Assembly: GCA_015146655.1 (NCBI GenBank)
Contig: VKHL01000044.1
Span: forward strand, 1-64,000
Length of the DNA: 64,000 nucleotides
DNA from: Ochromonas danica
Lineage: Eukaryota > Sar > Chrysophyceae > Chromulinales > Chromulinaceae
Reading direction: 5' to 3'
Below the pieces are notes generated by a model. It ran no database searches. It was given only the letters and a program-made list of their open reading frames with translations, and was not told the origin of the DNA. Position numbers and translations under genes: made by a program. Positions 6,572-59,957 of this stretch are shown piece after piece; within the stretch, counting starts at the first letter, position 1; every line of letters begins with the position of its first letter.

Positions 6572-7240
6572 CTAATGCTGACAAACCATAGACAATACTT
6601 TACCTAACTTACGAAACTCTGATGCGCATTTCTCAAAATGCATTTTAACATTTCTTTCAAAACCTGCACGTGCAGGATATTCAAAGACAATGACCGAATT
6701 ACCACCCAATTCTTTTGATGTTGTCTCATCAACATAACAGAATGTACTCTCTCCTCCAGGCACTGGATAACCCAAAGCCTTTCCCAACAACTCAGTAGGA
6801 ACAGGTTGGCAATGTGGTTTTAAGATCAATTCTTTGATCAAATGGAACTTGGGATGATTGCGAGTAGTAAAGAGGTAGAAGACGAACTCGGTATTACCAT
6901 GTTTTGGAGAATGTGCTTGTTGAATGGTACGAAAGATTTCAAATCCTGGTAATTCAGGTAGAAACCCTTGTAATACATTTGTGACAAGTTCTTGAGCGAA
7001 GAGTGGGTAGTCCGTATTGGCAATGAGGAAGCATGGTTTGATCCCTAAGAGAGTGAGGAAGAACTCTCCGTAATGGGTGAGTAAAGTGGGATCATAGATA
7101 CCATCAGGATGATTCCTCCCTAGAGTGTGTTTTACATGATCAGGTAAGGATTGCAACCAACGCCATTCAAGTTCTTTGAAACGAAGAGTTAAAGAATGGA
7201 TTTGTTCTTGAGAAAGTGTCGTCATCGTTGTTGTTGTCAT
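6572..7240 (-). CDS. Hypothetical protein, 222 aa
   Basis: A single-exon open frame beginning MTTTTMTTLSQEQIHSL. Composition is balanced and globular, with no transmembrane segment and no signal peptide. Conserved-looking stretches are YGEFFLTLLGIKPCFLI, ELPGFEIFRTIQQAH and LLGKALGYPVPGGES. I do not recognise the family and assign no function. The start is the first ATG in frame, preceded by an AG-rich leader. It is divergent from the first ABC transporter, about 0.8 kb away. Confidence 0.7.
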   Translation of the reverse strand: MTTTTMTTLSQEQIHSLTLRFKELEWRWLQSLPDHVKHTLGRNHPDGIYDPTLLTHYGEFFLTLLGIKPCFLIANTDYPLFAQELVTNVLQGFLPELPGFEIFRTIQQAHSPKHGNTEFVFYLFTTRNHPKFHLIKELILKPHCQPVPTELLGKALGYPVPGGESTFCYVDETTSKELGGNSVIVFEYPARAGFERNVKMHFEKCASEFRKLGKVLSMVCQH

Positions 7241-8059
7241 TCTTCTTCTTCTTTGTTGTTACTATTTCCACAATAAGAAACAACGAGATCAAGAAAGACA
7301 GGGAGAATTAGGAAGATGATATGAACAAGTCTCTAAGGAGAGCAAAGCACTCCACGGTAATAAGAAATGAACGATAGACGGTGAAATCAATGGTGGTTTC
7401 GTCTGTGTGTTGGTGGTGAGATGAAACGCTTCTGCTTCAGTGAAACCGTCCATTCATCCTCTCTCCCAGGATTTGGATGATTTTCGCCGTGTCTTCTCTA
7501 TTGATCTCATTGCAGTGGAATGTCTTAATCTGTGAATAAGCATGTATTTAATGGTAAGATGATCATCTCTACCTAGTTACTGGATAAGCGATGTTCTTTT
7601 TTATGTTTGAAAGATGAAATTGACCCTCACTTCCACTACAAAGACGGGAGAGAGTGTGTTTGGTGTTTGTGTGTGACCGGCTGCTCGGTGCTGTATGCGG
7701 GTGAGTGAGTAAGAAGCCCGACAATTTCGAGGAGGTGGATTTAGCGATGACAACTCCTCCCCTCTCTCTCTCTAATCTAACACTCTTGAATCATTCAACC
7801 TATACTGTCCAACCCCTTCAAACACTATCTAACAATCCATCTAGTGATGAAAATATTCACCATATTTTTTAATAACTAAATTTACCAGGTGAGTAAAACA
7901 GTAGAAGAGCGTTCACCGTCATTTCTGGCCGGCAAAGCGCTGAGGAGGTGCTCATGACCCTTGATCTTCATTCTCCTTCTCTTCCAACCACCACAACTAA
8001 TTGAATGACAACTTCAACAACTTCTTTTTCTTCATTCATTTGAGAATAAAAAGACTATC
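7241..8059. promoter_or_regulatory. Divergent promoter region upstream of ABC transporter 1
   Basis: About 820 bp between two divergent starts. It includes a CT-rich tract near 7760. There is no supported ORF and no clear TATA or Inr consensus, so the promoter role is inferred only from gene orientation. Confidence 0.4.
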
Positions 8060-11000
8060 ATGAGCTTTCAAAAGGTATCCCATGAAAAAACATATCTTGA
8101 TCTTGCCAAGAAATTGGAAGATGAAGCCCGTTACAATGCAGAACTAATCAAGTACATGAAAGCAAACGATCTTGACATACCACCTCGTCCTGAACCAGTC
8201 AAACTGACTAGTACAGAGAAAGCAACTCTACATACGGTCATGCAAAAGGGTAGTATTGAAGAAATTCAAGCATCCTTAGAACAAGCACAAAAAGTAGCAC
8301 GCTTGCCTGATATTTCCATTGAGTTCCATGATCTCTGCTTCACCACCTCGGTGCCCGTGAAAAGAGAAATCCCTTCTACTGGACAACTTTTGAAAGACCT
8401 GTTCTGCTTTTGGAAGAAAACAGAGATGAAGGAAGTGGCGATTCTCTCTCACCTCACAGGTCGCATCCTGCCTCGTAAGATGACCTTGCTCATGGGTCCA
8501 CCTGGTTCAGGCAAATCATGTGAGTTACCGTATAGTGCTGAAATGACCTTCGCCTTTTCTTCTCTTGACTGTCTGTGCTGTTTGTCTCTGCTCTATACTG
8601 AATGATGACTGCTGCCTGTGCTATCTCAGCTTTGTTGCGAGCTCTGTGTGGTAAGCTCCATCCTCTGGGACACTCTTCTTATACTGGAGCGGTCTACTAT
8701 GATGGTGACGATATCACGTCGGGGAAGTTCCTTGTTCGAAAGGTCGCTGACTATGTGGAGCAGGGTGATACGCACGAAGCCACCCTCACAGTGAAAGAGA
8801 CCTTGACCTTCTCATGGATGTGCTCGACTGGAGGTCATAGAAGCTATGGATTTGCCAAAGATGAAGAGACAGCAGAGATGCTAGATGAAGATCGCAGCCA
8901 CACCATGATAGCCAATGCATTGTTGGCACTGGGTCTGAGTGGGTGCAAAGACACATATATTGGTGGACCTCGAATCCGTGGAGTGAGTGGCGGTCAAAAG
9001 CGCAGAGCCACGATTGGTGAAATGATCGTGTGTCCTCGACCTGTAAGAGTCTATAAGACATAGTATTTTGCCTTTATTCATCCTTCACTTGCATTGACTG
9101 TGTAGGTGAAGATGATGGATTGCATTACCAGCGGATTGGATTCAGCCACCGCCTATGATATTGTGAAGGCTATGAAAGTAGTGAATGAAATGTTGGGTTT
9201 CACCAATGTTACCTCTCTCCTACAAGTAAGCAAAGTATCGTAATCTCCATACATGTTTTCAAGGAGCTAATTCAGTACCACACACTTCTTCTAGCCTCCC
9301 CCAGATGTCTACGCTCTCTTTGATGAGATCATCCTGCTTCATGAAGGTCACATCATCTATCAAGGTATGATGGCATAACGCTGCACCACAGCACATCCCA
9401 TTTTCAATGCCTGCATTATTTCCACCCTAACCCTATCCCTATTTTACCCCACCCTTCTGCTACTACCAGGATCTCGAGAACAAGTCAAGGGGTACTTCGA
9501 AGGACTGGGATACTTCTGTCCTAATAACATGGATGAAGCAGACTTCCTGCAAGAGCTGTGCACTCCAGAAGGAAGAAGATTCATCCAGAAATCCGACGCA
9601 CCTCATGGTGCTGATGCCTTGGCTAAGGCGTGGAAGACTTCTGAGCTCTATCAGCAGTTGCTAGTTGAGATGCGCTATCCCAGCGCAGAGGATGCGAGAG
9701 CGATTTCACGGGGAAATGAGAAAGTATGGCCAGTAGACTGCATCGAAAAGTACCCTGCCTCCTTCTGGTTCTACTTCAAACTTTGCTTCATTCGTCAGTC
9801 GAAGGTAGTCATCAGAGATGCTGTCTATCTCAAAGCTCGCATCGCTCAGAACCTCATCATGGGAGCTATTACAGGGTCTCTCTTCAGCAACATTTCCAAG
9901 AATGATGTTAATACTATGAACGGCTTTCTCTTCAACACCATCCTTTTCAACGCCATGGGTGGTTTCGATATTCTCACCATCATCTTCGATCAGAAGGCTG
10001 TCTATTACAAACACAAAGACTCCCTCTTCTTCCCCTCCATTGGATTCACCTTCGCTCAGACTATCACCATGTTGCCTGTGCAGCTCTTTGAGAACATCGC
10101 CTATGTCACCATCATCTACTGGTCAGCTGGCTTGTCATCTGATCACAATGGATCTCGCTTCCTCACCTACATCGTCATCAGCTTGGCGCTTGCAATGGTT
10201 ATGAGCCAGCTGTTTCGTATGGTGGCTTCGGTCCGTAGCACTGTCACGGAGAGTGTTCCTGTCCTTGGTCCCATCATTGTCTTGATGATCCTCTTCAGTG
10301 GCTTCGTTCAGCCCAAGTCCGTCATCAGTGATGGATGGATGTGGTTCTATTGGCTCAACCCCATCTCATGGGCACTCAAGGCAGTCACGCTGAATGAGTT
10401 CGGATCTCCCAAGTATGACTATGACACTTGCGTGAATGCTGCCTGCACACAAAAGGAAAGGATGGGAGACTTTGTTCTCAAGGAGTATGGCAACCCCACC
10501 GATGAAAAGTACATTTGGTACTCCTTTGCTGTGCTCATTGCCCACTTCCTGTTTTACTTCACCTTGACCGCCTTAGCCTATGAGTATATTCGCATCGAAC
10601 CTGTTCCTCCTCCTCCCATTCGACAGCCAGACAATGAAGAGTCCAAAGCAGATGAAGACAACCATCACGATGACTCTCCTACAAAGGAAGATTACCTCCC
10701 CTTCGACCCCATTTCCTTCGCCTTCGACAACATCTGGTATACCGTGACGTTACCCAACGGCGAAGATGTGGATCTGCTCAAAGGAGTGAGTGGCTTCTTC
10801 GAGCCTGGAAGCATCACAGCGCTCATGGGGTCGACTGGAGCTGGAAAGACCACCTTGCTTGATGTGCTGTCCGGCCGCAAAAACACGGGTGTGATTAAAG
10901 GAGAGATGTATCATAATGGCATGAAGAAGAATGACAATTACTTCCGTCGCATCATGGCCTATGTCGAGCAGTTCGATAGCTTGCCTGCCAAATGTACCCC

Positions 11001-12923
11001 GAAGGAGATCGTGGAGTTCAATGCTCGCTTGAGATTGTCTTCTGCAATATCGAAGTAAGTCCCAATCTACCACAGAACATACTGTGCGCTCATCTTCACC
11101 ACTGCATCGCTTGGTTGCTAACTTCATTGTGAAATGTGTGTATTACTGCAGCGAGCAACGTATCATGTGGGTGAACTCCATTATGAAGATGATGAATTTA
11201 ACTCCTTTCCAAGATGAAATGGTAATCCAGTTGTACTCCAATGCTCCTTCCATTGCCATCATTGACAGCACATATTGACGATCTCCTTCATCGTGTATTG
11301 AGCAGATTGGTGACATGAACTCGGGAGGTGCCAGCTTCGAACAGCGAAAGAGAGTCTCGATTGGGACGGAATTGGCAGCTAACCCCTCCATCCTCTTCTT
11401 GGACGAACCCACCACAGGCTTGGATTCCTTCGCTGCACAAGCTCTCGTTCGAAACATTCGAACCATCGCAGAAACCGGCAGAACGGTCGTCTGCACCATC
11501 CATCAGCCCTCCTCTGCCATCTTCCATGCTTTCGATAATCTCTTGTTGTTGAAGAGAGGAGGTCAGATAGTTTACTTCGGTCCCTTGGGAGAACAAGGCC
11601 GAAGCCTCATCGACTATTTCGAGGCGGCTCCTAATGTTTCTCCCATGCCTCATCAAGTCAACCCCGCCACTTGGATGTTAGAGGTCATTGGTGCAGGCAC
11701 CAGTGGTCAAGCATCAACAGAGACAGATTATGCTGCTTATTACTCCTCGTCCACTCTTTGCACAGTCAATGCCGTGCATCTGACCAGTCTGATCCAGCCC
11801 AATTCCGGCTCTCAGGCCCTTCGAGAAGATCAGTTAATGGAAAACAATGGCAACAATGTCCCATACTGGCGTCAATTTTATTTTGTATTGGAACGGTTTG
11901 CTTTAACTTATTGGCGCACTCCGAGTTATTTGTTGGTGCGTGTTGCGATGAATCTTATTATTGCGCTCATTTTCGCGTCAGCTTATCCCAACCAAAAATA
12001 TAGAGATTCCATCGAAACTAGCTCAAGAGCTACAGTTATATTTATCACCTCCTTGTTTGCTACTCTTAATGCCTTGAATGCAATGGTTCCAGTTTCGTTG
12101 GATGCACGTTCAGTATTCTATCACGAACAACAATCTCGAATGTATGCCGTATCCACCCATTGGGGTGCTCAGATCATAATGGAGGTGAGATTACTTGATG
12201 CTTAACTTTTAAAATTATGGGACACTAATTGATCAACTTCTTTTATTATACAGGCAATCCTCAATTTATCGACTTCGGTCGTTTTTGTGTTGCCATTCTT
12301 CTACATTGTCGGATATAATAAGCCTGGAAATGAAGCTCAGAAATTTATGTGGTATTGGTTCTTGACTATAATGATACAAGGCACACTTGTGTGTATGGGA
12401 AATATGTTTGTGGCGCTGGCACCTGACCAACCAACTATTCATAGTAAGTGACATTATCATATTGCTGTTAAACGATTGATACATAACAAGTGTGCTTGAT
12501 TGAATAGTTCTCAATGGTATGGCTAGCATGATCATGTCCATGTTTTGCGGCTTCCTTATCACGCAAGATAGCTTCCCCACTTTCTGGTTGTTCGTATACT
12601 GGCTCAATCCTTTCCATTATGCCTTAGAAGGATTAATTATGACTCAATTCCATAAAGATGATACTGTCATTACAACATCGAATGGAGAAAAGGTGACAGC
12701 TGAGTATTATATCACCGAAGTACAATTCAAGGATTGGAGTTATGACCATGTTGGCTATGACGTCTTAGCCTTGGGGTTATACATGGTGGTATTTGTGTAA
12801 GTTTTCCGTCCTCTCTTTATGCTTTTACGCTGTTCTCTTAGGTTGATGAATCTGTTGTTGATTGTTTGTTTCAGGGTGGCGACGTACTTTGGTCTGCTGT
12901 ATCTTCGTCATGAGAGACGCTAA
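8060..12923 (+). CDS. Full-length ABCG/PDR-type ABC transporter, copy 1 (10 exons)
   Basis: Pleiotropic drug resistance-type exporters use ATP to move hydrophobic compounds or lipids out across the plasma membrane. I read exons 8060-8519, 8630-9042, 9106-9225, 9295-9364, 9470-11054, 11152-11221, 11306-12184, 12254-12443, 12508-12796 and 12875-12923, giving 1,374 aa. The order is NBD1-TMD1-NBD2-TMD2, as in PDR proteins. NBD1 has Walker A GPPGSGKS (completed by exon 2), C-loop GVSGGQKRRATIGE and a Walker B reading VKMMDCITSGLDS, where Cys replaces the catalytic Glu. NBD2 has Walker A GSTGAGKTTLLDV, an unusual C-loop NSGGASFEQRKR, Walker B ILFLDEPTTGLDS and H-loop TIHQPS. So one composite ATP site looks canonical and one degenerate. 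The core from 8596 to 11845 is identical to copy 2. Substrate unknown. Confidence 0.92.
8596..11845 (+). repeat. Identical tract shared by the two ABC genes, member 1
   Basis: 3,250 nt that align to 14192-17441 at a constant offset of 5,596 with no difference that I found, across exons 2-6, most of exon 7 and all included introns. Just outside, intron 1 differs in length and sequence, and exon 7 after 11845 differs at many sites. Confidence 0.85.
12518..12692 (+). repeat. Second identical patch in ABC exon 9, member 1
   Basis: 175 nt identical to 18116-18290, lying between exon 8 and exon 10 sequences that are clearly diverged between the two genes. Confidence 0.8.
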
Positions 12924-13598
12924 TAGACGACATGCTTTCGATTTTCGATTCAGAAAGAGTTGTTGTCTAAGTTTTGATATAGTATAGTATTAGAATGCAC
13001 TATATTCAGTCTACCGATGTGATCCCTTGCCATGCTTTGGCACGGTGTACTACATGAAAAATATATATATTCAACATTAAAATAAATTGCGACGATTCCA
13101 TCATAACTAAACCACCCCTGTTCGTTGGCTACAAACCCCCTGTCTATTTCTGAAGGCTTTACTTTCATAACGTTATCACCATCCAAATCCGAAATCAAGT
13201 CTCTGGTGAAGTGCAAGCACAGTTTGCGTGGGGCAGGAATTGTCTGTCACCATTCCATGGAATTGCTAACTTCTTCAATCCCGCGCAACGTGGGGAACCG
13301 AAAATGAAGACAACAAGGAAGAATTCAATTAGTATGACAAACAAAATATTATCATGTAAATCACCTTTTCATTATATAATAAAATATCTGATAGCAAGGA
13401 TTCTATTCAACGTAATTGTTCAATTGTATGAATCTTTCTGACGGGCATTATCAAGCGTTCCAACGGATTCCATGTTGTCATCCCGATGATTTTGAGGAAG
13501 TGGTTGAACTGGAGTTGTCGTTGAAGTCCACCAGCCAGTGAAGACAAAGAGGGCGGTCTGGACTCTTCCTCATTTATTATGATATTTAATCATCATCC
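12924..13598. other. Spacer between tandem ABC transporter genes
   Basis: 675 bp holding the 3' UTR of copy 1 and the presumed promoter of copy 2. It is AT-rich, with no supported ORF. It does not resemble the region upstream of copy 1, so the duplication did not preserve the promoter or it has diverged. Confidence 0.5.
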
Positions 13599-16500
13599 AT
13601 GAGCTTTCAAAAGGTATCCCATGAAAAGACGTATCTTGATCTTGCCAAGAAATTGGAAGATGAAGCACGTTACAATTCTCAGTTAATTGACTACTTGAGA
13701 GAGCATAACCTTGACGTACCACCACGTGACGAAACAACATCACCAACTAATGGAGACTCGATTCCAACTGATCATCATCAATTCAAAGCCCCTTTGCTAA
13801 AAGTAGGTAATATTGAGGAAATACAAGCAACATTGGTCAATGCCCAGAAGATAGCACGCTTGCCTGATATTTCCATTGAGTTCCATGATCTCTGCTTCAC
13901 CACCTCGGTGCCCGTGAAAAGAGAAATCCCTTCTACTGGACAACTTTTGAAAGACCTGTTCTGCTTTTGGAAGAAAACAGAGATGAAGGAAGTGGCGATT
14001 CTCTCTCACCTCACAGGTCGCATCCTGCCTCGTAAGATGACCTTGCTCATGGGTCCACCCGGTTCAGGCAAATCATGTAAGTAACTGTATAGCATTGATA
14101 TGCTTCTTGTTCTTGTTCCTTTGTCATGATTTCATGGCCTTTGCCTTCTCTTCTCTTGACTGTCTGTGCTGGTTGTCCCTGTCTTGTTGGCTACTGAATG
14201 ATGACTGCTGCCTGTGCTATCTCAGCTTTGTTGCGAGCTCTGTGTGGTAAGCTCCATCCTCTGGGACACTCTTCTTATACTGGAGCGGTCTACTATGATG
14301 GTGACGATATCACGTCGGGGAAGTTCCTTGTTCGAAAGGTCGCTGACTATGTGGAGCAGGGTGATACGCACGAAGCCACCCTCACAGTGAAAGAGACCTT
14401 GACCTTCTCATGGATGTGCTCGACTGGAGGTCATAGAAGCTATGGATTTGCCAAAGATGAAGAGACAGCAGAGATGCTAGATGAAGATCGCAGCCACACC
14501 ATGATAGCCAATGCATTGTTGGCACTGGGTCTGAGTGGGTGCAAAGACACATATATTGGTGGACCTCGAATCCGTGGAGTGAGTGGCGGTCAAAAGCGCA
14601 GAGCCACGATTGGTGAAATGATCGTGTGTCCTCGACCTGTAAGAGTCTATAAGACATAGTATTTTGCCTTTATTCATCCTTCACTTGCATTGACTGTGTA
14701 GGTGAAGATGATGGATTGCATTACCAGCGGATTGGATTCAGCCACCGCCTATGATATTGTGAAGGCTATGAAAGTAGTGAATGAAATGTTGGGTTTCACC
14801 AATGTTACCTCTCTCCTACAAGTAAGCAAAGTATCGTAATCTCCATACATGTTTTCAAGGAGCTAATTCAGTACCACACACTTCTTCTAGCCTCCCCCAG
14901 ATGTCTACGCTCTCTTTGATGAGATCATCCTGCTTCATGAAGGTCACATCATCTATCAAGGTATGATGGCATAACGCTGCACCACAGCACATCCCATTTT
15001 CAATGCCTGCATTATTTCCACCCTAACCCTATCCCTATTTTACCCCACCCTTCTGCTACTACCAGGATCTCGAGAACAAGTCAAGGGGTACTTCGAAGGA
15101 CTGGGATACTTCTGTCCTAATAACATGGATGAAGCAGACTTCCTGCAAGAGCTGTGCACTCCAGAAGGAAGAAGATTCATCCAGAAATCCGACGCACCTC
15201 ATGGTGCTGATGCCTTGGCTAAGGCGTGGAAGACTTCTGAGCTCTATCAGCAGTTGCTAGTTGAGATGCGCTATCCCAGCGCAGAGGATGCGAGAGCGAT
15301 TTCACGGGGAAATGAGAAAGTATGGCCAGTAGACTGCATCGAAAAGTACCCTGCCTCCTTCTGGTTCTACTTCAAACTTTGCTTCATTCGTCAGTCGAAG
15401 GTAGTCATCAGAGATGCTGTCTATCTCAAAGCTCGCATCGCTCAGAACCTCATCATGGGAGCTATTACAGGGTCTCTCTTCAGCAACATTTCCAAGAATG
15501 ATGTTAATACTATGAACGGCTTTCTCTTCAACACCATCCTTTTCAACGCCATGGGTGGTTTCGATATTCTCACCATCATCTTCGATCAGAAGGCTGTCTA
15601 TTACAAACACAAAGACTCCCTCTTCTTCCCCTCCATTGGATTCACCTTCGCTCAGACTATCACCATGTTGCCTGTGCAGCTCTTTGAGAACATCGCCTAT
15701 GTCACCATCATCTACTGGTCAGCTGGCTTGTCATCTGATCACAATGGATCTCGCTTCCTCACCTACATCGTCATCAGCTTGGCGCTTGCAATGGTTATGA
15801 GCCAGCTGTTTCGTATGGTGGCTTCGGTCCGTAGCACTGTCACGGAGAGTGTTCCTGTCCTTGGTCCCATCATTGTCTTGATGATCCTCTTCAGTGGCTT
15901 CGTTCAGCCCAAGTCCGTCATCAGTGATGGATGGATGTGGTTCTATTGGCTCAACCCCATCTCATGGGCACTCAAGGCAGTCACGCTGAATGAGTTCGGA
16001 TCTCCCAAGTATGACTATGACACTTGCGTGAATGCTGCCTGCACACAAAAGGAAAGGATGGGAGACTTTGTTCTCAAGGAGTATGGCAACCCCACCGATG
16101 AAAAGTACATTTGGTACTCCTTTGCTGTGCTCATTGCCCACTTCCTGTTTTACTTCACCTTGACCGCCTTAGCCTATGAGTATATTCGCATCGAACCTGT
16201 TCCTCCTCCTCCCATTCGACAGCCAGACAATGAAGAGTCCAAAGCAGATGAAGACAACCATCACGATGACTCTCCTACAAAGGAAGATTACCTCCCCTTC
16301 GACCCCATTTCCTTCGCCTTCGACAACATCTGGTATACCGTGACGTTACCCAACGGCGAAGATGTGGATCTGCTCAAAGGAGTGAGTGGCTTCTTCGAGC
16401 CTGGAAGCATCACAGCGCTCATGGGGTCGACTGGAGCTGGAAAGACCACCTTGCTTGATGTGCTGTCCGGCCGCAAAAACACGGGTGTGATTAAAGGAGA

Positions 16501-18514
16501 GATGTATCATAATGGCATGAAGAAGAATGACAATTACTTCCGTCGCATCATGGCCTATGTCGAGCAGTTCGATAGCTTGCCTGCCAAATGTACCCCGAAG
16601 GAGATCGTGGAGTTCAATGCTCGCTTGAGATTGTCTTCTGCAATATCGAAGTAAGTCCCAATCTACCACAGAACATACTGTGCGCTCATCTTCACCACTG
16701 CATCGCTTGGTTGCTAACTTCATTGTGAAATGTGTGTATTACTGCAGCGAGCAACGTATCATGTGGGTGAACTCCATTATGAAGATGATGAATTTAACTC
16801 CTTTCCAAGATGAAATGGTAATCCAGTTGTACTCCAATGCTCCTTCCATTGCCATCATTGACAGCACATATTGACGATCTCCTTCATCGTGTATTGAGCA
16901 GATTGGTGACATGAACTCGGGAGGTGCCAGCTTCGAACAGCGAAAGAGAGTCTCGATTGGGACGGAATTGGCAGCTAACCCCTCCATCCTCTTCTTGGAC
17001 GAACCCACCACAGGCTTGGATTCCTTCGCTGCACAAGCTCTCGTTCGAAACATTCGAACCATCGCAGAAACCGGCAGAACGGTCGTCTGCACCATCCATC
17101 AGCCCTCCTCTGCCATCTTCCATGCTTTCGATAATCTCTTGTTGTTGAAGAGAGGAGGTCAGATAGTTTACTTCGGTCCCTTGGGAGAACAAGGCCGAAG
17201 CCTCATCGACTATTTCGAGGCGGCTCCTAATGTTTCTCCCATGCCTCATCAAGTCAACCCCGCCACTTGGATGTTAGAGGTCATTGGTGCAGGCACCAGT
17301 GGTCAAGCATCAACAGAGACAGATTATGCTGCTTATTACTCCTCGTCCACTCTTTGCACAGTCAATGCCGTGCATCTGACCAGTCTGATCCAGCCCAATT
17401 CCGGCTCTCAGGCCCTTCGAGAAGATCAGTTAATGGAAAACGATGGCAATAATGTTTCCTATTGGCTGCAGTTCTGGCTTTTATTCAAGCGGTTTGCTTT
17501 AACTTATTGGCGCACTCCGAGTTATCTGTTGGTTCGACCTATTATGTATCTTATTATTGCGTTGATTTTCGCGTCAGCTTATCCCAACCAGAAGTACCAT
17601 GATGCTGTCGAAACCACATCAAGAGCTACAGTTATATTCATCACTGCTCTGTTTTGCAGTCTCAATGCAATGAATTCTTTGGTCCCCGTCTCATTGGATG
17701 CACGTTCAGTATTTTACCACGAACAGCAGTCACGCATGTATTCGGTGTCAATCTTTTGGGTAGCCCAATTCTTGATTGAGGTTAGTTCTTAATTTCACAT
17801 AACTTCTCCTATCAATAGGGATAACATCTTGTTTGCGTAGGTGCCACTGATTTTGGCAACGGCATTGATTTTTACGCTTCCCTTTTTCTATATTGTGGGT
17901 TTTGATAGCCCTGGAAATGAAGCGCAGAAATTCATGTGGTACTGGTTCTTCACCATAATCCTTCAAGCCACAGTTATTTACATGGGTAACATGTTCGTTG
18001 CCATGGCACCTGATGAACCCACGATTCACAGTAAGTTGCAAGTTTCTTTGTTGTATATTGGGCTATTGGGCTATTTCGTCTTTTTCTAACACATGTCATC
18101 TTTAGTTCTCACGTCTATGGCTAGCATGATCATGTCCATGTTTTGCGGCTTCCTTATCACGCAAGATAGCTTCCCCACTTTCTGGTTGTTCGTATACTGG
18201 CTCAATCCTTTCCATTATGCCTTAGAAGGATTAATTATGACTCAATTCCATAAAGATGATACTGTCATTACAACATCGAATGGAGAAAAGATGACCGCCG
18301 AGAATTATATCAATAACGTCCAATTCAAGGATTGGAGTTATGATCAAGTGGGCTATGACGTCTTAGCCTTGTGCTTATATATGGGGTTCTTTTTGTAAGT
18401 GCTTGTTCTCTCATCGTTGTTTGTCACTTTCTTGGTTGACTTTTGCTGTTGTTGTTTATTCACAGAGTTGCTACATATCTGAGTTTGGTCTATTTACGCC
18501 ATGAGAAGCGCTAG
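13599..18514 (+). CDS. Full-length ABCG/PDR-type ABC transporter, copy 2 (10 exons)
   Basis: Tandem paralogue of the preceding gene with the same exon plan: 13599-14076, 14226-14638, 14702-14821, 14891-14960, 15066-16650, 16748-16817, 16902-17780, 17841-18030, 18106-18394 and 18466-18514, giving 1,380 aa. NBD1 keeps the same Cys-for-Glu Walker B and NBD2 the same canonical DEPTTGLDS. The first 25 or so residues match copy 1, then residues 26-85 diverge and are six residues longer. NBD1 to the start of TMD2 is identical. Much of TMD2 (for example VPLILATALIFTLPFF here versus AILNLSTSVVFVLPFF) has diverged while exon 9 is again identical. Because TMD2 and the N-terminus carry the differences, the copies may differ in substrate or regulation; that is inference. 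Confidence 0.92.
14192..17441 (+). repeat. Identical tract shared by the two ABC genes, member 2
   Basis: Counterpart of 8596-11845, including identical introns. Identity of non-coding and synonymous positions argues for recent homogenisation rather than protein-level selection. Confidence 0.85.
18116..18290 (+). repeat. Second identical patch in ABC exon 9, member 2
   Basis: Counterpart of 12518-12692. The flanking introns and exon ends differ between the two genes. Confidence 0.8.
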
Positions 18515-19036: not shown

Positions 19037-19822
19037 TTACAGCTTGCGAACCATATAGCAGCCATCCGCCACTGGCAACAACACGGACTTCACACGAACA
19101 TCTCGCTTGATCTTCTCGTTCAACGCGATGATGGCTGCCGTGTCCACATCGCCAGCAGTGGGTTGAAGAATACGACCACTCCACAACACATTGTCCACTG
19201 CAATCACACCTCCTTTGCGGAGAAGAACAAGACTCTTCTCGTAGTAGGCATCATAGTTAGCCTTGTCTGCATCTATGAACACCAGGTCGTAGCTGCCCGC
19301 TTCTCCTGCTGCGATCATCGCTTCCAGCGAATCTACCGCCGAACCCACGCGAAAGTCGATCTTGTGCTCCACTCCCGCTGCCTTCCAAGCAGCCTTGCCC
19401 AACGTCGCGAACTCGTCCGAGATGTCCAACCCCACGATCTTCGCATCTTCCGCCAGGTTCAAAGCCAGAGACAGAGTCGTCGAGCCTCGAAAGACGCCCA
19501 CTTCAATCACCTTCTTCACGTCCAGAAGAGCTCCCAGCCAGCTCAAGAACTGAGCTTCATCAGGAGATCCCATCATGATGCTTGCCTCTTGTTGCAGGAT
19601 TGCCTCGCGCAAAGACACCTGAGCAGGAGTCTCTCCGATATGCTCAAGCACATAGGGGTAGAGTTCAGGATGACCACCCAAGGTTGTCACTCGCTCGAAC
19701 TTGGTCAGAGCTGCTGGATGTTGTTGAGATTTCGATTGCATGATCAACGAAAGAGAAGAGGAGAAAGTGAATGTGGTCGAGAAGAAGACAATTGATAATA
19801 ACAACAAGGGGGCAGAGGCCAT
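19037..19822 (-). CDS. Secreted or plastid-routed SAM-dependent O-methyltransferase (family 3, CCoAOMT-like)
   Basis: Family 3 O-methyltransferases transfer a methyl group from S-adenosylmethionine to catechol-like hydroxyls, usually with a divalent metal. The frame is open from 19876, but the ATG at 19822 starts a clear signal peptide (MASAPLLLLSIVFFSTTF) and is preferred, giving 261 aa. The SAM-binding motif I is KKVIEVGVFRGSTTLSLAL, followed by the acidic residue in VGLDIS. The metal/catalytic segment is DLVFIDADKANYDAYYE with VIAVDNVLWSGR after it. The C-terminal strand VLLPVADGCYMVRKL is typical. The leader suggests entry into the ER or, in an ochrophyte, possibly the plastid; no Phe cleavage motif is certain. 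Intronless and more G+C-rich than neighbours. Substrate unknown. Confidence 0.88.
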   Translation of the reverse strand: MASAPLLLLSIVFFSTTFTFSSSLSLIMQSKSQQHPAALTKFERVTTLGGHPELYPYVLEHIGETPAQVSLREAILQQEASIMMGSPDEAQFLSWLGALLDVKKVIEVGVFRGSTTLSLALNLAEDAKIVGLDISDEFATLGKAAWKAAGVEHKIDFRVGSAVDSLEAMIAAGEAGSYDLVFIDADKANYDAYYEKSLVLLRKGGVIAVDNVLWSGRILQPTAGDVDTAAIIALNEKIKRDVRVKSVLLPVADGCYMVRKL

Positions 19823-20462
19823 GCTTGGTTTCTTGCAGGTCACTCTTGCTGGGTTGACTTTCCAGAAGAATGACACTTGGCAGAATTTCTATCCTGCCTC
19901 CTCATCCTCATCCTCATCCTCATGCATTCTATTGTCAGACTGTCCACCTGGAGCTAGGAGGTGGAGAGACTCCTTCTCATTCTCCTGGATTCTCTTGTCA
20001 TGATGTCCAGTTGGAGGAAGGAGGTGATGGAATGGAAATGACACAGTGAGAAAGTCTCAATAGTGAAGTTAGAAGTAGCATGTCGGATGTTGTGGAATTG
20101 CGTGGAACAGTTTTGGATGTTGTGGAATTGTGTGGAATTGTTGTTTTCATTGGGCTGAAGTTGGGAACAGAGAACAAAGTTATGCTTTTTACACTATAGC
20201 TTTAGCATGGTTACATCCCTACTTTTTCTGCTATGATTTACTTGAGAAGGATACGCAGCTGACAATGATATTGATCATTGTCATTCATAATTCTAGAAAT
20301 TGAAGGTTTCCTCCTCCATTGGGGATAGGAGAAAAAAGTGGATACATTGACATATCAACATGTGCTATCATTTATAATACCTGAAGTGAATTAAAAATAC
20401 TTTGGTCATTATTTGACCAGATCAGAAAAGGATGGCATTCCAAGGAATCCATATAAGGGTCA
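19823..20462. other. Intergenic with short degenerate repeats
   Basis: Contains a (CCTCAT)n tract near 19897-19922, followed by an imperfect 40-nt duplication, and a TGTTGTGGAATTG tandem repeat near 20082-20140. No gene is supported. Confidence 0.5.
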
Positions 20463-40688: not shown

Positions 40689-43095
40689 TTAGGTTTCCAT
40701 TAAGAAAGTTGGCAAACTCTCTAAGATCAGAGGTCGTAACATTAACCAAGTGATCTTCTCAGGTAAATACTCCATAATAGTCAATTGTCGCAATGTTAAC
40801 GTCATTGCATCAACTAAGGTGGGGTTAATAAATTGAATCTCAGAGTTCATGACCATTGAAGACTCATTCCGATCCATTACGATTGCATTATGAGCTTCCA
40901 AAAACTTGGGATCGCCTTGTAATGTTCCAATATTTAGTCGGCCATTATTGGGGGGAGTGGCATTAGTAGAGGCAAAAGCTCCACCACTTGAACGATGAGA
41001 TGATCCACGACGTAATAATAAGTCTCGTATAGATGATCGTGTTGATTCTTTACGTGTCAATACAGTTGCCATCGGAAGATTGTCTTCTTCTTCTAACAGT
41101 GAGGATTGTGCTTGTGCTTGTTGTTGTTGCAATTGTTGCTGTGATTGTTGCTGCGATTGTTGTTGCGATATTTGTGCTTGTTGTTGAGCAACTTGTTGAA
41201 CATTCTTATGCGCTGACATTACACGAGCAATAGTAAAGAAAGAAACAGAAGGTTTCCGACTAGTATTTGGACTACTATCACCACTATCTTTCTTCTCAAC
41301 TGTAATTCCTTCATCTCTACCTGCACGACCACTTTCTGCTGAAAGAGGTCGACTACTTGATTCTTTTCCTAATAACATAGGATTGCTTCTATTATTACTA
41401 TTGTTAGCAGATTGTGTAATGAATTGTGCTGCTAGATAGGTTTGAATCAGAGTAGCATATTCTTCATATTCCTCACTCACTTTATAGACAATAGATGATA
41501 ACTCTGATAGGATTATTTTTGATTCTAATCCATGCTCAGCTACAACAGCTTCCATTAATCTTCCATTATCTTTATCATTATTTTCATCATCCAATTCAAC
41601 ACTATTTTTACGTGAACGTTGATTTTCCATTTCTAACATTTTTTCTTCAAATAAACGTAAAAATACTTCAATTCCTTCAAAATGTTGTTTTAAAGCAGGT
41701 GAATAAGATTGTGTTTGAAAAGAAGTAAACTTGAACATATTATTAGCAACAATACTAAAATTACGTTGTCGTCTGTTTTTAGTTGGTGTTGTATTAAAAG
41801 AGACGGACTCTCTCTTAGTATTGAATTTATTTGATTCTTCTCCAACATTCATACCCATAGTACTGCTCATATGATTACTAACATTTTTATTGGAAAAGGA
41901 TTGTTGTGATGGTAGTATTGCAGATAGTGAAGGAGATGGAATGGTCTCATCCTCTGCTTCATGTGCTTTGGCTTTTAATACTTGAGCTAACTTATTCATT
42001 ATTCGACTACGTCTCTTCTTCTTATCTTCTTCTGCATTCTCTGTTGATTCTTTTCCTCTTACTGGTTCATCAGAGACATTGATATTGGTGGTGGTTGCAC
42101 GACGAGGTGGGTTAAGTAAATTCGATGATGTGCCTGTCATGGCTGTCATGGAATGATGTTTGACTAATACACTACCTTGCTTCTGACCTTCATCTGCCTT
42201 ATTATCTCCATCACCATCCTTTTCATCATCATCATCATCATCATCATCATTACTCGTGACTATTCTCTCCATGGAAGCTTGTCTTGCCATCCTAGCAAGC
42301 TTCATAGTAGCAGCAACTGTGTTATTGACAAGATTCCAATTTTTCTCTGTACTTGGTCGAATAAGACGTGGAGCACTACTAATAGCTGCTTCACCAGCTT
42401 TCCTTGCTGATCGTTCATTTTGTAATTGTAATTTAAGACGATTTTCTCGTTCTTCAGCAATCTTACGTTGATGTAGTATTTCTTGTCTTGCTTCTTTTTC
42501 TTTTCGTATTTCACGATCAAGAAGTCTTTCAATTAGATCATCTTCACCATCATTTACATCAATAGAAGAACTATCACCCAGACTACTACTATCATCATCA
42601 TCTTCTTCTTCTTCATTATATTCTTCATTATCCTCTTCACTATTATCATGAGATGATCTTCTGCTAACAATACTCAGTCTTTTCTCTAGACTTTTGTTAC
42701 CACCTCCATCACCTTTCTTTGCAAGTCCCGCTCTTATCGTGGTTGTTGTTGCTGTTGTTGTTGCTGAAGCAGTAGTTTTCATAGAGAGCATCATACTTAG
42801 CCAAGATTCAGGTAAGGTGAGTTCACTTGGGATATAGTGACAAGGAGGATGATAGACTCGTTTATCTACTAAGAAATGATCCATTGAACTCATATTACTA
42901 GGTAAAATCTCATCACGTACTATCGCAACAGATGCTTTAATCGAGAAGTTACCTAAGGAAAGTGTTGGAATAGTTAATAATAGATCATGTTTTTCTACAC
43001 CATCTAATAATGCTTGTGAATCTTTTTGCATTTTCAATTTACTCATATAAAGTATAAAATCACCTTCTTCTTGTAATATAAAATCACGATGACCA

Positions 43096-43129
<34 letters not shown>

Positions 43130-46100
43130 GATCGCGTAAAGGTGATAAAGGTGTAGAATTATCTGTTTTGGGTAGATCAAAAGGAAATGCAGATGTTGAT
43201 CTCCGACTATTAGCACCAGTTGTTTTAGGGAAACCAAAATCTGCTTTCTCATTTCGACCTTCACCATCACGTCTACCATCATTATTATCCTCCTCATCAA
43301 CTTCTTCTTCTTCTCGTTCAATCATAGAAAAGAGTTTACAAGGAACAAGCATATCTTTCAAATAATCCACAACATCTTCTGGTCTACCACATAAACAATG
43401 TAAACGACATTCTTGTATAGGAATAGTTTGTTCTTTCTTAAAGACTTTAATTGTTGTCATACGACCACGTCGTGTCTTTCTTCTCTTTGAACTACTAGTC
43501 GTTGTATTACTACCAGGTGTAAGATCATCTCGACTACGTTGTTGACCTGATAATTTATTCTGTTTCACAAGAAATGGAATGAAGACCTTTTGTTGACCAA
43601 AAGTATAATGAACTGCAAGATAACGTGGAATCAAATCTTCACCTTTCTTCCTTCTCCTTCTCTTCCTTTTCCCTGTTGGTCCTATTCCTATTCCTGTACC
43701 TGCTGCTGTTGTGTAGCTTTTGCGGGATGTGGAAGGCAGGGTAGGAGAAGTGTTTGTAGGTGATGGACTATGATCACCATTACGAAGCATAGCATCAATT
43801 AGTGTATTCAACTTATCAGAATCTTCTAAAATAGCATAATGAAACATAATTAATACTCTCCAATGTAAGACACCATAAGGTATAGAATGATAACTACAAT
43901 ACGAAGTAGTAGATGATGGACGGCCTCGACTACTACCGCCACCAGTTGGAGAATGTGTACGTATTGGTGACTTCATTCCTAGATTCTGTATATTACTAAC
44001 ACTACCATAAGGAAGATGAAGTGAAGGACTTCGACTAATATGAGACATGTTATATCTTTCTCTAATGAGCCTAATGAGTTCGATAAGATTGATTGTATCA
44101 TCTAACGCTTCTTGATCCCTCCCTTCTCTATTATTTCCATGGATACTAATAACAGATGGTCGAAGAATACTACTATTTCCTGACTGATAGACTTTTGACA
44201 TATTTCCACCAAGAATAGTACTACCCATGTTATTAGTCATTATGCTCTTACCCATCAGACCATCTCCAGTAGATGCAGTAGTAGTGGTAGTCGTAGTAGT
44301 GGTAGTGGTAGAGCAGGCAGAGGAAGAGATACCCAATAGTTTATGCATATAGTCAACACGATCATTGAGATGACTATACTTAGAATAGATATTAAAACAC
44401 CGATAACAACAAACAACAATCTCACCATTAGCATCTTGATGAAGTAGTTTCTCTCCTGTTTGACCATTACTACCACTACCATTACTACTCTCTGTAGTAT
44501 GATCCATTAATAACTGTTTAACACTACGACTATTAATATCTTGTGTAGCATTAATTTTAAGTAATGCCTTAGCAAATAGTGTAGCAGGGATATGATAAGA
44601 GGATAAGATACTAACAACTGTTCTAGCAGCTGATAAAGCAATCTGATAACCATAAGCTGGTATATGTGTAATCATAACATTACCTCTATTTAACCCTTCT
44701 CCATTACTATTACTATTACCATTACTATTACTTCTATCATGTACATGTATAGAAATACTATTATTATAATAATCCATTTCTTCTTCTTTTAATTCAATTG
44801 TAGCTGTTGATAGATAATATAATCCACATAAACAACACATGGAACCTGTTTCAATCTGTTGTTTAATACGTCTTTCTTTTGCAGATAATGGTTTTTGTTT
44901 AATTACTTGATGTATTGGTTTATGTAAAATATGTATAGCATGCCATATTTTCACTTTTGGTAATGAATCAGATGTTAATTTGAAAGATTTCAAATTAATA
45001 AACCACCATTTCCCATTATCATCTTTAATAAAATCAACAACTGCTTCTGATATAAAGAGTGGTAAATCATGTATATCACGTAACATCACTTGCATCCAAT
45101 GTGTTAATTGAGCTATATATTGAATTGGAATATCTAATACTGTACTTGAAACACGTGTTGCTGTTAAACGACAATATTTTTCAGGTGATAATTCTCCATC
45201 ATTGGATGTCATACTAACTGAATTACGATATCCTACAGATGTCATTGTCTATGAGAACATATCATATCAAATACAAGTAGTAACAGTTAGTTAGCTAGTT
45301 AGTAATAACAGTGTAAGTATGTGTGTGTATGTTTATAGATGAAAATAACGTACCCTAGCATTAATTAATAATGCTTTTGTTCTTTCAGCATTACTCATAA
45401 ATGATCTACTAATCATTCCTTTCATAAACAATCTATTATCATCATAATACATACAATACATAAAATCCATCAATTAGATGAAGAATGGACATAAGATGAA
45501 AAGGGTAATAAAGTAAAGTAAAGTAAAGTAAAGTAATACTACTATCAACTTACTGATCTAGTTCTTCTTTACTATGAGATGTAAAATAATCTGCTGCATG
45601 TTCTTTCATTCCTGCTTTGGGGGCAATACGATGAGATGCACCCACACCACCAGCACTAGCACTACCAATACCAATAGCACCAGCTGTAGCATGATGTGGT
45701 GTGGTCGCTGTTGGCTTGGTATTCACTGCCTCATTGTCATCTTTCCTACTGCTTCTAGAGAGAAGAATAGAAGGGATTGGACCTCTTCTCATGATTGGTG
45801 ATCTCGTTGTTGGTGAGGTAGCTAAGCTGGTAGTAGTTGTTGTACCAGCAGGTGTTGTGGTGGTGGTTGTATTAGGATTGGTAATAGTAATAGGAAGGGG
45901 TACCAAACCATCTCCTCCTCCTCCTCCTCCTCCTCCACTAATCGACACCACACTATTTCGTCTATTCCCATTAACAGAAGTAGTAGTGTTAATAGTAGGA
46001 CTAGATGATGGTAATGATACCTCTTGACTTCGACTACGATGAATCATTAAAGGATCATCACGATCATCATGACTCATTGATAATGCCATGGATAACCTTT

Positions 46101-46845
46101 TCATTGCTTGTTTACCTAATGAACCTTTCAAATCCATCTTAACAACTTCATCTGTTAATTTAGCAATTCGTTCTTCTAATGGATCTGTTTCTTCACCATT
46201 ATTTGTCATCATCATCATCGTCATCATAGCATTAGTAGCAGCTTCATGTGCTTTGATTTGTTCATTTTCTAATTGAATCTCTCCAGCACGAATATAGGTA
46301 GCAAGTAACTTAGTAGTCTGTTGTTTAAAGGCAAGTTCTTCTAATTCTTCATTTCCTTCTGGTCCTCCTCCTCCTCCTCTTCCAACTACCCCTGTATCAC
46401 CCTCACCACTACCTCCTCCTCCTCCTCCTCCACCTCCTCCTCCTCCTCCTCCTCCACCACTACCATTATTAGTACCATTACTCTCAGGATCATTTAAAGG
46501 TGTATTTCGATCTAAAGAGATTAAATCAGGTAATGTGAAATCATCTGATCGTGTGGTAATATTCCATCCTTCTGCTATCCCCATGACTCCGCTACCTCTT
46601 TTCCAAAATAATCGATAAATACTAGGTCTTCTTCCTCTTGCTTTAATAAACTTTTGTAAGAGAGAAGGTGATGATAAATTATTATCCATTAATTCTAATA
46701 TTTGTGCTTGAAAAGCAATCGGTAATAAGAAATCAGATTGTTGTGAAGTATATTGACGTGATGCTTTAATAGATGGTCTTTTTTGAATAGCAACAAATCG
46801 TTTATATAATGCTTCAGAAGAAGAAGAAGCAGAAGAAGGATGATC

Positions 46846-46888
<43 letters not shown>

Positions 46889-47509: not shown

Positions 47510-47861
47510 CTTCCTAGTCCTCGTTACTCACTTCAGAGCATTCTCTTTGCTTTCTGTTTTATTAATTGTTTTATTATTATTTTTCTTTCAACGATCCCAA
47601 GGAGGAGAAATTTCGACCGTTTTTCGGCTCAAAAATAGAAACAGCTTTTTACCTGCTGTCTCTGACATTGCATAAACGCGTTTCTATATTTAGACCGTTA
47701 ATTTAAAGCGAGAACGACAGCAGAGGCCGTTTCCCCGCAGAGAGAAGGTTGCAACGGTTTGGTTTATAGTCTACAACAACAGAGCTGTGTGAAGTAGTGC
47801 TAGTCTTAGTCTATATACTCTTCCCACTGATAGTGACCTTGATCTGAGACCTTGTTAGAAG
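47510..47861. promoter_or_regulatory. Divergent promoter region between two large low-complexity genes
   Basis: 352 bp separate the two ATGs. It contains a TTTTTCGG/CCGTTT-rich stretch near 47615-47745. Assigned by orientation only. Confidence 0.35.
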
Positions 47862-57264: not shown

Positions 57265-58182
57265 ATGAGTCACAAAGTGAAGTCTTTGAATAATCAGCAA
57301 GGTGAAGATCGAAATTCTCCCCTTCGAGCCTCTGCCTCCATGGCAATCCTCCCTAGTCCTTCCATGGCTGGTGAGGTCATGAAATATGTCTCTTCTTTAG
57401 ACTCCAGTACAACTCGTTGGATGAATAAAAGAAGACCTAAGTCTAGTGCTGCATTACCTCGTCATATTATGCCTGCTATCGCTGTCCAACTCAAACAACT
57501 CTTTGATAACTTTGATATGGATCATTCTGGAGAGATTGATCTTATCGAATTGAAACGTGCTGTCAAATTTGTTGCTGATGCTTGTCCTGAAGCAGGTGGG
57601 AAACGTTATAGTGCGAAAGATGCTCAAGCTATCACCAATTTCTTCACCTCAATGGATGCGAATAATAATGGTGTGGTAGACTTTGTGGAATTCTTAGCTG
57701 CTATTACAACTGCACATTCAGAAAATGGTGCTGAAGAAATGACTAACGCAACTCGTCGTCTTCAAGCTGCTTTCATTGAATTTGCTACACTACTTCGTCG
57801 CAAAAGACTGACTAATAATGTCTTCAGTGAGCACAGATCTTCCTTGGAGAAAGTGGAATCATTGAAAGAGCTTTATTCAATTAACTATTTCGTTGATGCT
57901 GGACTTGATGAAGAACCAGATCCAATTAAGGTCAATAAACAATGGGATGCTTTTAATGGAGGGGTAATGCAAAATCGTCGTAAGAAAGAAATGGAACGTG
58001 CAAGAACCGCAATGGCTTTAATCAAGAGTAAACGCTCTTTGCCTCCTCCTGTATTGTCTGATGATACAAGCACTAAGTCATCTGCTTCTTTCCCTCTTAT
58101 TGTGGTTCATAAGAGAGATGTGGTACCTAGTATCTATGCTCGTCCATCTCTTCCAAAGATTGTGACTGTTCATCGTTATTGA
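57265..58182 (+). CDS. EF-hand calcium-binding protein, copy 1
   Basis: A 305-aa intronless protein. Two canonical EF-hands sit together: loop DMDHSGEIDLIE after KQLFDNF, and loop DANNNGVVDFVE after ITNFFTS. Both have Asp at position 1, Glu at 12 and Gly at 6, so Ca2+ binding is expected. The N-terminus is Ser/Pro-rich; the C-terminal half is helical and basic with FVDAGLDEEPDPIKVNKQW and a Ser/Pro tail, not recognised as a kinase or other enzyme. A calcium sensor or adaptor is the best reading. The ATG at 57265 (MSHKVKSLNNQ) is the first in the open frame. The block 57418-57702 is identical to the next gene. Confidence 0.85.
   Translation: MSHKVKSLNNQQGEDRNSPLRASASMAILPSPSMAGEVMKYVSSLDSSTTRWMNKRRPKSSAALPRHIMPAIAVQLKQLFDNFDMDHSGEIDLIELKRAVKFVADACPEAGGKRYSAKDAQAITNFFTSMDANNNGVVDFVEFLAAITTAHSENGAEEMTNATRRLQAAFIEFATLLRRKRLTNNVFSEHRSSLEKVESLKELYSINYFVDAGLDEEPDPIKVNKQWDAFNGGVMQNRRKKEMERARTAMALIKSKRSLPPPVLSDDTSTKSSASFPLIVVHKRDVVPSIYARPSLPKIVTVHRY
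57418..57702 (+). repeat. Identical tract shared by EF-hand genes, member 1
   Basis: 285 nt identical to 59154-59438 at a constant offset of 1,736, covering both EF-hands. Sequence on either side shows many synonymous and non-synonymous differences. Confidence 0.85.
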
Positions 58183-59072: not shown

Positions 59073-59957
59073 ATGTCAACAATTCATTCCAATCACTCTG
59101 CCGCTGATGAGGTCATGAAATATGTCTCTTCGTTAGATTATCATACTACAAAATGGATGAATAAAAGAAGACCTAAGTCTAGTGCTGCATTACCTCGTCA
59201 TATTATGCCTGCTATCGCTGTCCAACTCAAACAACTCTTTGATAACTTTGATATGGATCATTCTGGAGAGATTGATCTTATCGAATTGAAACGTGCTGTC
59301 AAATTTGTTGCTGATGCTTGTCCTGAAGCAGGTGGGAAACGTTATAGTGCGAAAGATGCTCAAGCTATCACCAATTTCTTCACCTCAATGGATGCGAATA
59401 ATAATGGTGTGGTAGACTTTGTGGAATTCTTAGCTGCTGTTACCAATAAGCATGATAAGAACAATGCTGCAGAATTAGCACGCGCCAATCGTCTACAAAC
59501 AGCATTTATTGAATTTGGTACTCAACTTCGTCGACAACGTTTAGCTAAACGTCTTGAAAATGATCATATTTCATCCAGAGATAAAGTAGCATCATTAAAA
59601 CAACTCTACTCTATCAATTACTTTGTTGATTCTGGACTTGATCAAGATTATGATCCTGTAGAATTTAATAAACAATGGGAGACTTTTAATGGTGGAGTGT
59701 TACAAACTCGTAAGAAGAATGAATTAGAACGTACAAGGAAAGCTGCAGCTGCTTTATTGAAACCCAAAAGTATCTTATCAACTGTAGCGGAAAATCCATT
59801 GGCGCTTACAAGAGCTGATTCCTTGCCACGCATTGTCACTCATAATAAGAGAGATATGATGACAAGTGTTCTTACAAGAACATCTTCTATCAACGATCAT
59901 AACCATCATCTACCTACTACACTTCCTCCTGTTGCAATGGCTAGAAAGATCTATTAA
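59073..59957 (+). CDS. EF-hand calcium-binding protein, copy 2
   Basis: A 294-aa tandem paralogue of the preceding gene with the same plan: short N-terminus, a shared VMKYVSSLD box, two EF-hands with identical loops (DMDHSGEIDLIE, DANNNGVVDFVE), then a basic helical half with YSINYFVDSGLDQDYDPVEF and a Ser/Thr/His tail. Outside the identical core the two proteins keep similar motifs but differ at many residues, so the pair is old while the core match is recent. Start is the first ATG (MSTIHSNHSAADEV). Function is likely calcium sensing; partners unknown. Confidence 0.85.
   Translation: MSTIHSNHSAADEVMKYVSSLDYHTTKWMNKRRPKSSAALPRHIMPAIAVQLKQLFDNFDMDHSGEIDLIELKRAVKFVADACPEAGGKRYSAKDAQAITNFFTSMDANNNGVVDFVEFLAAVTNKHDKNNAAELARANRLQTAFIEFGTQLRRQRLAKRLENDHISSRDKVASLKQLYSINYFVDSGLDQDYDPVEFNKQWETFNGGVLQTRKKNELERTRKAAAALLKPKSILSTVAENPLALTRADSLPRIVTHNKRDMMTSVLTRTSSINDHNHHLPTTLPPVAMARKIY
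59154..59438 (+). repeat. Identical tract shared by EF-hand genes, member 2
   Basis: Counterpart of 57418-57702, with no difference found across 285 nt. Confidence 0.85.

What the first reader, a model, noticed from the sequence alone, without database searches (positions are those of the whole stretch)
8596..17441. Recent gene conversion across a 3.25-kb core of two tandem ABC transporters
Seen directly: 8596-11845 and 14192-17441 match with no difference found, introns and synonymous sites included, while exon 1, intron 1, the end of exon 7, exons 8 and 10 and their introns differ widely. A second identical patch of 175 nt (12518-12692 / 18116-18290) is surrounded by diverged sequence. A single recent duplication would not give old flanks around two young islands. 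Conversion that homogenises NBD1-TMD1-NBD2 while leaving TMD2 and the N-terminus free to differ would preserve the engine and let specificity diverge.
Basis: partly seen in the sequence, partly recalled or inferred. Interest (0 to 1): 0.75.

Follow-up and report, generated by a model that had tools for sequence, protein, structure and literature searches.

The report
Patchwork conversion of tandem transporter genes
Two neighbouring, long-diverged membrane-pump genes carry several stretches that match letter for letter, best explained by recent copying from one to the other (gene conversion, a known process), and a second unrelated gene pair in the same stretch of genome shows the same pattern.

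Summary
8596-11845 and 14192-17441 are identical over 3250 of 3250 bases and the match ends exactly there. The 175-nt patch is real. A third island was missed: 8295-8502 / 13852-14059, 208 nt, so half of exon 1 is not diverged. The two intact 10-exon genes encode full-length Pdr5-type ABCG transporters. Outside the islands the copies are old: dS 0.9 to 2.3, introns 7-9 only 43-59% identical. Inside, dS is 0 to 0.02. No shuffle reproduced the islands. Recurrent interlocus gene conversion is the best reading.

The functional story is only partly supported. Diverged parts are under purifying constraint (dN/dS about 0.1 to 0.3). The 175-nt island lies inside TMD2 and covers most of the pocket helix TM11; three of the four helices lining Pdr5's pocket are wholly or largely identical between the copies. 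A second, unrelated tandem pair (EF-hand genes) has a 285-nt identical island between old flanks, so the process is not peculiar to transporters. Closest precedent: Candida krusei ABC11-ABC1. No eukaryotic relatives or reads could be examined, so timing, direction and selection remain open.

The parts
8060..12923 (+). ABC transporter gene copy A, 10 exons, 1374 aa, full-length ABCG/PDR type (exons 8060-8519, 8630-9042, 9106-9225, 9295-9364, 9470-11054, 11152-11221, 11306-12184, 12254-12443, 12508-12796, 12875-12923)
   Evidence: hand-built gene model with GT..AG introns and open frame; two ABC_tran and two ABC2_membrane stretches; PDB Pdr5 7p03 E 3.2e-141
13599..18514 (+). ABC transporter gene copy B, 10 exons, 1380 aa, same orientation
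   Evidence: gene model (last exon corrected)
8295..8521 (+). island 1 in copy A: 208 nt identical to 13852-14059, one mismatch at 8503, then 18 nt identical
   Evidence: dS 0.019
13852..14078 (+). island 1 in copy B
8596..11845 (+). island 2 (core) in copy A: 3250 nt identical; end of intron 1 to exon 7, NBD1-TMD1-linker-NBD2, aa 154-1086
14192..17441 (+). island 2 (core) in copy B
12518..12692 (+). island 3 in copy A: 175 nt identical, exon 9, aa 1266-1324, most of TM11 and the following loop of TMD2
18116..18290 (+). island 3 in copy B
8059..8130 (+). possible older tract, first codons of copy A: runs of 30 and 35 nt, dS 0.25 over 26 codons
11846..12517 (+). diverged stretch in copy A: TM7 to TM10 of TMD2, dS 1.27, dN 0.174
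17442..18115 (+). diverged stretch in copy B
57418..57702 (+). identical 285-nt island in the first EF-hand gene (gene 57265-58182)
59154..59438 (+). the same island in the second EF-hand gene (gene 59073-59957)

Best explanation
Two tandem full-length ABCG (PDR-type) transporter genes arose by an old duplication and have since been partly re-homogenised by repeated interlocus (ectopic) gene conversion between neighbours whose cores lie 5.6 kb apart. The copying is at DNA level, since introns are copied too. The latest event or events covered 3.25 kb plus at least two short tracts (about 0.2 kb each). Stretches that had already diverged, or whose difference is useful, were not overwritten. Shown: the mosaic, its sharp borders, dS near or above 1 outside and near 0 inside. 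Inferred: the mechanism, that several events of different age occurred, and that the same process acts on an unrelated EF-hand tandem pair. Not determined: direction, absolute age, and whether selection protects the diverged patches.
For: Exact identity over 3250, 208 and 175 nt with abrupt borders. dS 0.89 (8060-8294), 1.07 (exon 7 end), 2.32 (exon 8) and 1.31 (exon 9 end plus exon 10) in the diverged exons, against 0.019, 0 and 0 in the islands. Introns 2-6 identical while introns 7-9 are 43-59% identical, so protein-level constraint is excluded. Homology stops at the gene ends (self-BLAST 8028-12922 against 13566-18513). Permutation: 0 of 2000 for the core and 0 of 10000 for the 208- and 175-nt islands. 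Zero changes in about 622 synonymous plus 452 intronic sites bound core divergence to about 0.3% at 95% (my arithmetic), against dS of about 1.27 in the diverged stretch 11846-12516. Core third positions are GC-richer (484 of 886) than diverged parts (A 96 of 268, B 117 of 275), stratified by amino acid odds ratio 2.36 and 1.81, p 6e-9 and 4e-5 (Met and Trp codons left out). Published work lists raised GC3 as a mark of converted tracts (PMC2720389, passages). A second tandem pair in the window has a 285-nt island, flank dS 0.93 (16 codons) and 1.28 (125 codons), 0 of 10000 shuffles.
Against: No reads, second strain or relative was available. The GC signal is weak or absent elsewhere: island 3 GC3 22 of 51; EF-hand island 0.284 against 0.264 and 0.219; core introns against B introns 7-9 p 0.10. 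GC3 also differs widely between 14 other reading frames of the window (0.14 to 0.59), so base composition alone proves little. Two or more unequal crossovers could leave the same pattern.
Confidence: 0.86

Rival explanations
1. Serial unequal crossing-over in a tandem array: expansion to three genes and contraction back to two through hybrid genes leaves one gene with a replaced middle.
For: C. krusei ABC11-ABC1 does contract and expand by ectopic recombination (PMC6053246, passages). Direct tandem orientation here.
Against: Each island with both old flanks retained needs two crossovers (inference). Three islands here and one in the EF-hand pair would need many, with copy number returning to two each time.
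Confidence: 0.06
2. Assembly artefact: the true cores differ slightly and one consensus was written into both copies, or the locus is chimeric.
For: The record is imperfect: 45 Ns at 52378-52422 beside a tandem repeat. An exact 3250-nt repeat is hard to assemble from short reads (general knowledge).
Against: Cores as diverged as the flanks (dS about 1) could hardly be merged, so even a merged core means recent homogenisation (inference). The 208-, 175- and 285-nt islands are short enough for a read or read pair to span, and show the same pattern. The only N run lies more than 30 kb from the genes.
Confidence: 0.04
3. A young duplication whose ends were later overwritten from older third paralogs, so the flanks, not the islands, are the imports.
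For: The core has a higher GC3 than the ends, as if the segments had different histories. Paralogs outside the window could not be searched: no genome is held.
Against: Intergenic DNA on both sides shows no detectable homology between the copies, which a young duplication should leave. Imports would be needed in the N-terminus, part of intron 1, TM7-TM10 and the C-terminus.
Confidence: 0.04

Closest known systems
Candida krusei (Pichia kudriavzevii) ABC11-ABC1 tandem PDR transporter pair
   Same: [quoted passage not shown] the family's members have specialised transport functions (PMC8765293, passages). The primary paper (Lamping et al. 2017, Genetics) is not held; that only short transmembrane patches differ there is recalled.
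   Different: Here the genes have 9 introns, the diverged stretches are old (dS 0.9 to 2.3) and long, only parts are homogenised, and the host is an unidentified eukaryote with no functional data.
Human red/green opsin genes (peak of divergence under gene conversion)
   Same: Old duplicates kept alike by conversion except around a diverged stretch (PMC3924837, passages).
   Different: In opsins the peak holds the residues known to set colour sensitivity. Here no residue has been linked to a function, and diverged stretches also include introns, the N-terminus and the C-terminus.
Mammalian pairs under partial concerted evolution (BMP8A/B, DDX19A/B, TUBG1/2)
   Same: Mosaic of concerted and divergent regions in one gene, with higher GC3 in the concerted part, significant for two of the three pairs (PMC2720389, passages).
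   Different: Those were shown with sequences from several mammals; here there is a single genome.

Membership tests
Interlocus gene conversion | Identical tracts with sharp borders inside more diverged paralogs | tested here: met
Interlocus gene conversion | Identity includes synonymous and intronic sites | tested here: met
   0 changes at about 622 synonymous and 452 intronic sites of the core
Interlocus gene conversion | Paralog closer to its neighbour than to its ortholog in the tract, not outside it | not testable with these tools
   no eukaryotic relative found: genome contigs gave 1 distant cyanobacterial locus, viral contigs none; no own genome held
Interlocus gene conversion | Raised GC in converted tracts (supporting, not defining) | tested here: inconclusive
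   yes for the core GC3, weak for introns, absent for island 3 and the EF-hand island
Full-length ABCG / PDR transporter | Order NBD-TMD-NBD-TMD with two ABC_tran and two ABC2_membrane domains | tested here: met
   copy A; alignment to Pdr5 and Cdr1. Copy B is identical to A over A's residues 79-1086 and was not scanned separately
Full-length ABCG / PDR transporter | Exports drugs or other hydrophobic compounds | not testable with these tools
   sequence only
C. krusei-type selected mosaic (conversion plus selection on specificity patches) | Diverged patches carry function-setting differences kept by selection | tested here: inconclusive
   dN/dS about 0.1 to 0.3 in diverged parts, no excess of replacement changes; TMD1 is identical and TM11 differs at 2 of 19 positions

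The most novel reading that the evidence does not exclude
The genome continually overwrites tandem paralogs, and in this pair selection shields TM7-TM10 (including the pocket helix TM8) and the N-terminal tail. One conserved engine is then shared by two pumps of different specificity, an independent parallel to the C. krusei ABC11-ABC1 case in another eukaryote.
Probability: 0.2. Interest if true: 0.5.

Novelty: new member of a known kind. Interest (0 to 1): 0.32.

Why it matters
It is a clean single-genome example of conversion acting on two old paralogs, with borders sharp enough to map to the base. Two of the two tandem gene pairs that a nucleotide self-BLAST and a protein-level self-comparison found in this 64-kb window carry such islands, which suggests that homogenisation of tandem genes is common in this organism. 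Gene trees and ages of tandem duplicates there would then be misleading unless tested segment by segment. If the diverged patches prove to set specificity, it would be a further lineage in which conversion and selection split one pump into a shared engine and separate substrate parts.

Tried and rejected
Protein-level constraint as the cause of identity: rejected, because introns and synonymous sites are identical. RNA-mediated copying (a processed copy): rejected, because introns 2-6 are present and identical in both. False tandem duplication of two alleles by the assembler: rejected, because the copies differ at dS 0.9 to 2.3 outside the islands. A further ABCG copy or fragment in the window: tblastn with copy A found only the two genes and cross-matches between their halves; three or four further hits with E above 2 were taken as chance. 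Other tandem pairs: 444 stop-to-stop frames of 50 aa or more, compared all against all, gave hits at E up to 1e-5 only within the ABC pair and the EF-hand pair. Relatives: genome contigs gave 1 confirmed locus of 15 candidate stretches (Nostoc, 34% identity, query residues 401-468, not studied further); viral contigs gave none. Both scans used exon 5 only. Own genome: none held. Direction of transfer: not decidable; copy B's diverged parts are slightly closer in GC3 to the core (117 of 275 against 96 of 268), which I do not count. The organism was not identified; Pro-Ser repeat proteins made me think of a stramenopile, which is recalled and untested. Literature: searches. One search (gene conversion + tandem duplicates + stramenopile) gave 0 papers; one search gave 3, none of which looked relevant from its listing. 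No structure was predicted.

Full report
Observation. In the window, 8596-11845 and 14192-17441 are the same 3250 bases with no difference, and the identity stops exactly at both ends. The 175-nt patch at 12518-12692 / 18116-18290 is also exact. The part of intron 1 outside the islands (8522-8595) matches at 58 of 74 aligned bases, with 39 bases present in copy B only.

Genes. Hand-built models give two intact genes of 10 exons each with GT..AG introns: copy A 8060-12923 (1374 aa) and copy B 13599-18514 (1380 aa). Copy A has two ABC_tran and two ABC2_membrane stretches. Its best solved relatives are Pdr5 (7p03, E 3.2e-141) and Cdr1 (9iuk, E 3.4e-139). It is a full-length ABCG transporter of PDR type; what it exports is unknown. 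Annotation of the flanks was partial: Pfam was given copy A and six other frames; an O-methyltransferase frame (19037-19888, minus) lies downstream, and the upstream frame 6575-7258 (minus) had no Pfam match.

Age contrast. dS and dN (Nei-Gojobori, Jukes-Cantor corrected) are 0.887 and 0.260 for 8060-8294, 1.072 and 0.155 for the end of exon 7, 2.321 and 0.186 for exon 8, and 1.312 and 0.148 for the end of exon 9 plus exon 10. The islands give dS 0.019 (island 1), 0 changes in about 622 synonymous sites (core) and 0 in about 32 (island 3). Introns 2-6 are identical; introns 7-9 align at 43-59% and the DNA upstream and downstream at 43-44%, i.e. no detectable homology there. Self-BLAST homology runs only from 8028 to 12922 and 13566 to 18513. 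From zero changes in about 622 synonymous and 452 intronic sites, core divergence is below about 0.3% (95%, my arithmetic), against dS 1.267 in 11846-12516.

Chance. Shuffling match/mismatch over 4849 ungapped columns (355 mismatches) gave a longest run of at most 172 in 2000 shuffles. Without the core, 1599 columns gave at most 58 in 10000. Without all three islands, 1197 columns remain and their longest run of 36 nt was reached in 9 of 10000. That last run and the first 26 codons (3 changes, all synonymous, dS 0.252 against 1.441 for codons 27-79) hint at older, partly eroded tracts. Shuffling ignores rate differences between codon positions, but the identical introns make that objection weak for the core.

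Base composition. Third-position GC (Met and Trp codons left out; the first 26 codons not counted as diverged) is 484 of 886 in the core and 168 of 273 in its TMD1, against 96 of 268 (A) and 117 of 275 (B) in diverged parts. The amino-acid-stratified odds ratio is 2.36 (p 6e-9) and 1.81 (p 4e-5), and TMD1 alone against the diverged parts gives 2.80 and 2.27. Core introns 2-6 have GC 178 of 418, against 68 of 211 (A introns 7-9, p 0.012) and 73 of 206 (B, p 0.10). Raised GC is expected if converted DNA is repaired towards G and C (PMC2720389, passages). Against this, island 3 (22 of 51) and the EF-hand island (0.284 against 0.264 and 0.219) show no clear rise, and 14 other frames in the window range from 0.14 to 0.59. 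I treat composition as weak support.

A second pair. Two EF-hand genes (57265-58182 and 59073-59957; Pfam EF-hand) share an exact 285-nt run at 57418-57702 / 59154-59438. Its 5' flank (16 codons) has dS 0.93 and its 3' flank (125 codons, up to 58080) dS 1.28; the island has 0 changes in about 59 synonymous sites. 0 of 10000 shuffles reached 285 (maximum 73). A nucleotide self-BLAST could favour pairs that hold a young island, so I repeated the comparison at protein level. Among 444 stop-to-stop frames of 50 aa or more, all hits at E up to 1e-5 between separate places fall within these two pairs. So two of the two tandem pairs found are mosaics. This is the strongest evidence that the process is general here and not a special feature of transporters, though two pairs are few.

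Mechanism. Young tracts with old flanks on both sides, introns included, in adjacent genes of the same orientation, are what interlocus gene conversion leaves. Serial unequal crossing-over needs two events per island. A young duplication with imported ends does not explain the unrelated intergenic DNA. An assembly merge could at most turn nearly identical cores into identical ones, which still requires recent homogenisation, and it does not explain the short islands. These comparisons are inference from the pattern.

Function. Of 93 aligned amino-acid differences, 30 lie in residues 27-79, 1 in 80-1089 and 62 in the C-terminal part. Hydropathy places TM7 to TM12 of copy A at 1114-1132, 1149-1167, 1200-1218, 1236-1254, 1263-1281 and 1348-1366 (approximate; it found only four helices in TMD1, so it is not complete). 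In Pdr5 the substrate cleft is flanked by TH2 and TH5a of TMD1 and TH8 and TH11a of TMD2, and S1360 is in it (PMC8421411, passages). By the alignment, counted by hand, S1360 falls on the serine of the sequence NGMAS, inside island 3. So TMD1, with TH2 and TH5a, is identical between the copies, TM11 differs at 2 of 19 positions at its start, and of the four cleft helices only TM8 (6 of 19) is clearly different. dN/dS is about 0.14 over TM7-TM10 and 0.3 in codons 27-79. That is constraint, not evidence for selection towards difference, though it does not exclude a few selected sites. A neutral reading suffices: stretches already below the similarity needed for recombination escape conversion and keep diverging.

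Comparison. The closest known case is the C. krusei ABC11-ABC1 tandem pair, 98% identical through recurrent gene conversion, able to contract to a chimera or expand to three genes (PMC6053246, passages; also PMC11881565, passages), with members of different substrate range (PMC8765293; PMC13059742; passages). The primary paper was not held. The theory that selection can leave peaks of divergence under conversion is summarised in PMC3924837 (passages). The present pair is a new member of this known kind, from an unidentified eukaryote.

Limits. One genome record, no reads, no eukaryotic relatives, no expression data; gene models without transcripts; the TM assignment rests on hydropathy and a weak alignment.

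Noticed in passing
57265-58182 and 59073-59957: Tandem EF-hand genes with a 285-nt identical island (57418-57702 / 59154-59438) between flanks of dS 0.93 and 1.28: a second conversion mosaic in the window.
   Followed up: yes
52009-52422: A 144-nt tandem repeat (2.6 copies, 100% matches) in a Pro-Ser-rich repeat frame, next to a 45-base N run at 52378-52422, the only N run in the window.
   Followed up: no
28-129: A 102-base stretch matching its own reverse complement at 86% (self-BLAST): a near-palindrome.
   Followed up: no
9106-9225 and 11306-11450: NBD1 reads MMDCITSGLDS where NBD2 reads FLDEPTTGLDS: the glutamate after the Walker B aspartate of NBD2 is a cysteine in NBD1 of both copies, while both Walker A motifs look intact (motif reading from memory). 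Pdr5 has asparagine at this NBD1 place (alignment).
   Followed up: no
41121-51688: Many short tandem repeats, several inside long frames of low GC3 (0.15) that code for runs of one residue such as N, T, Q and G.
   Followed up: no
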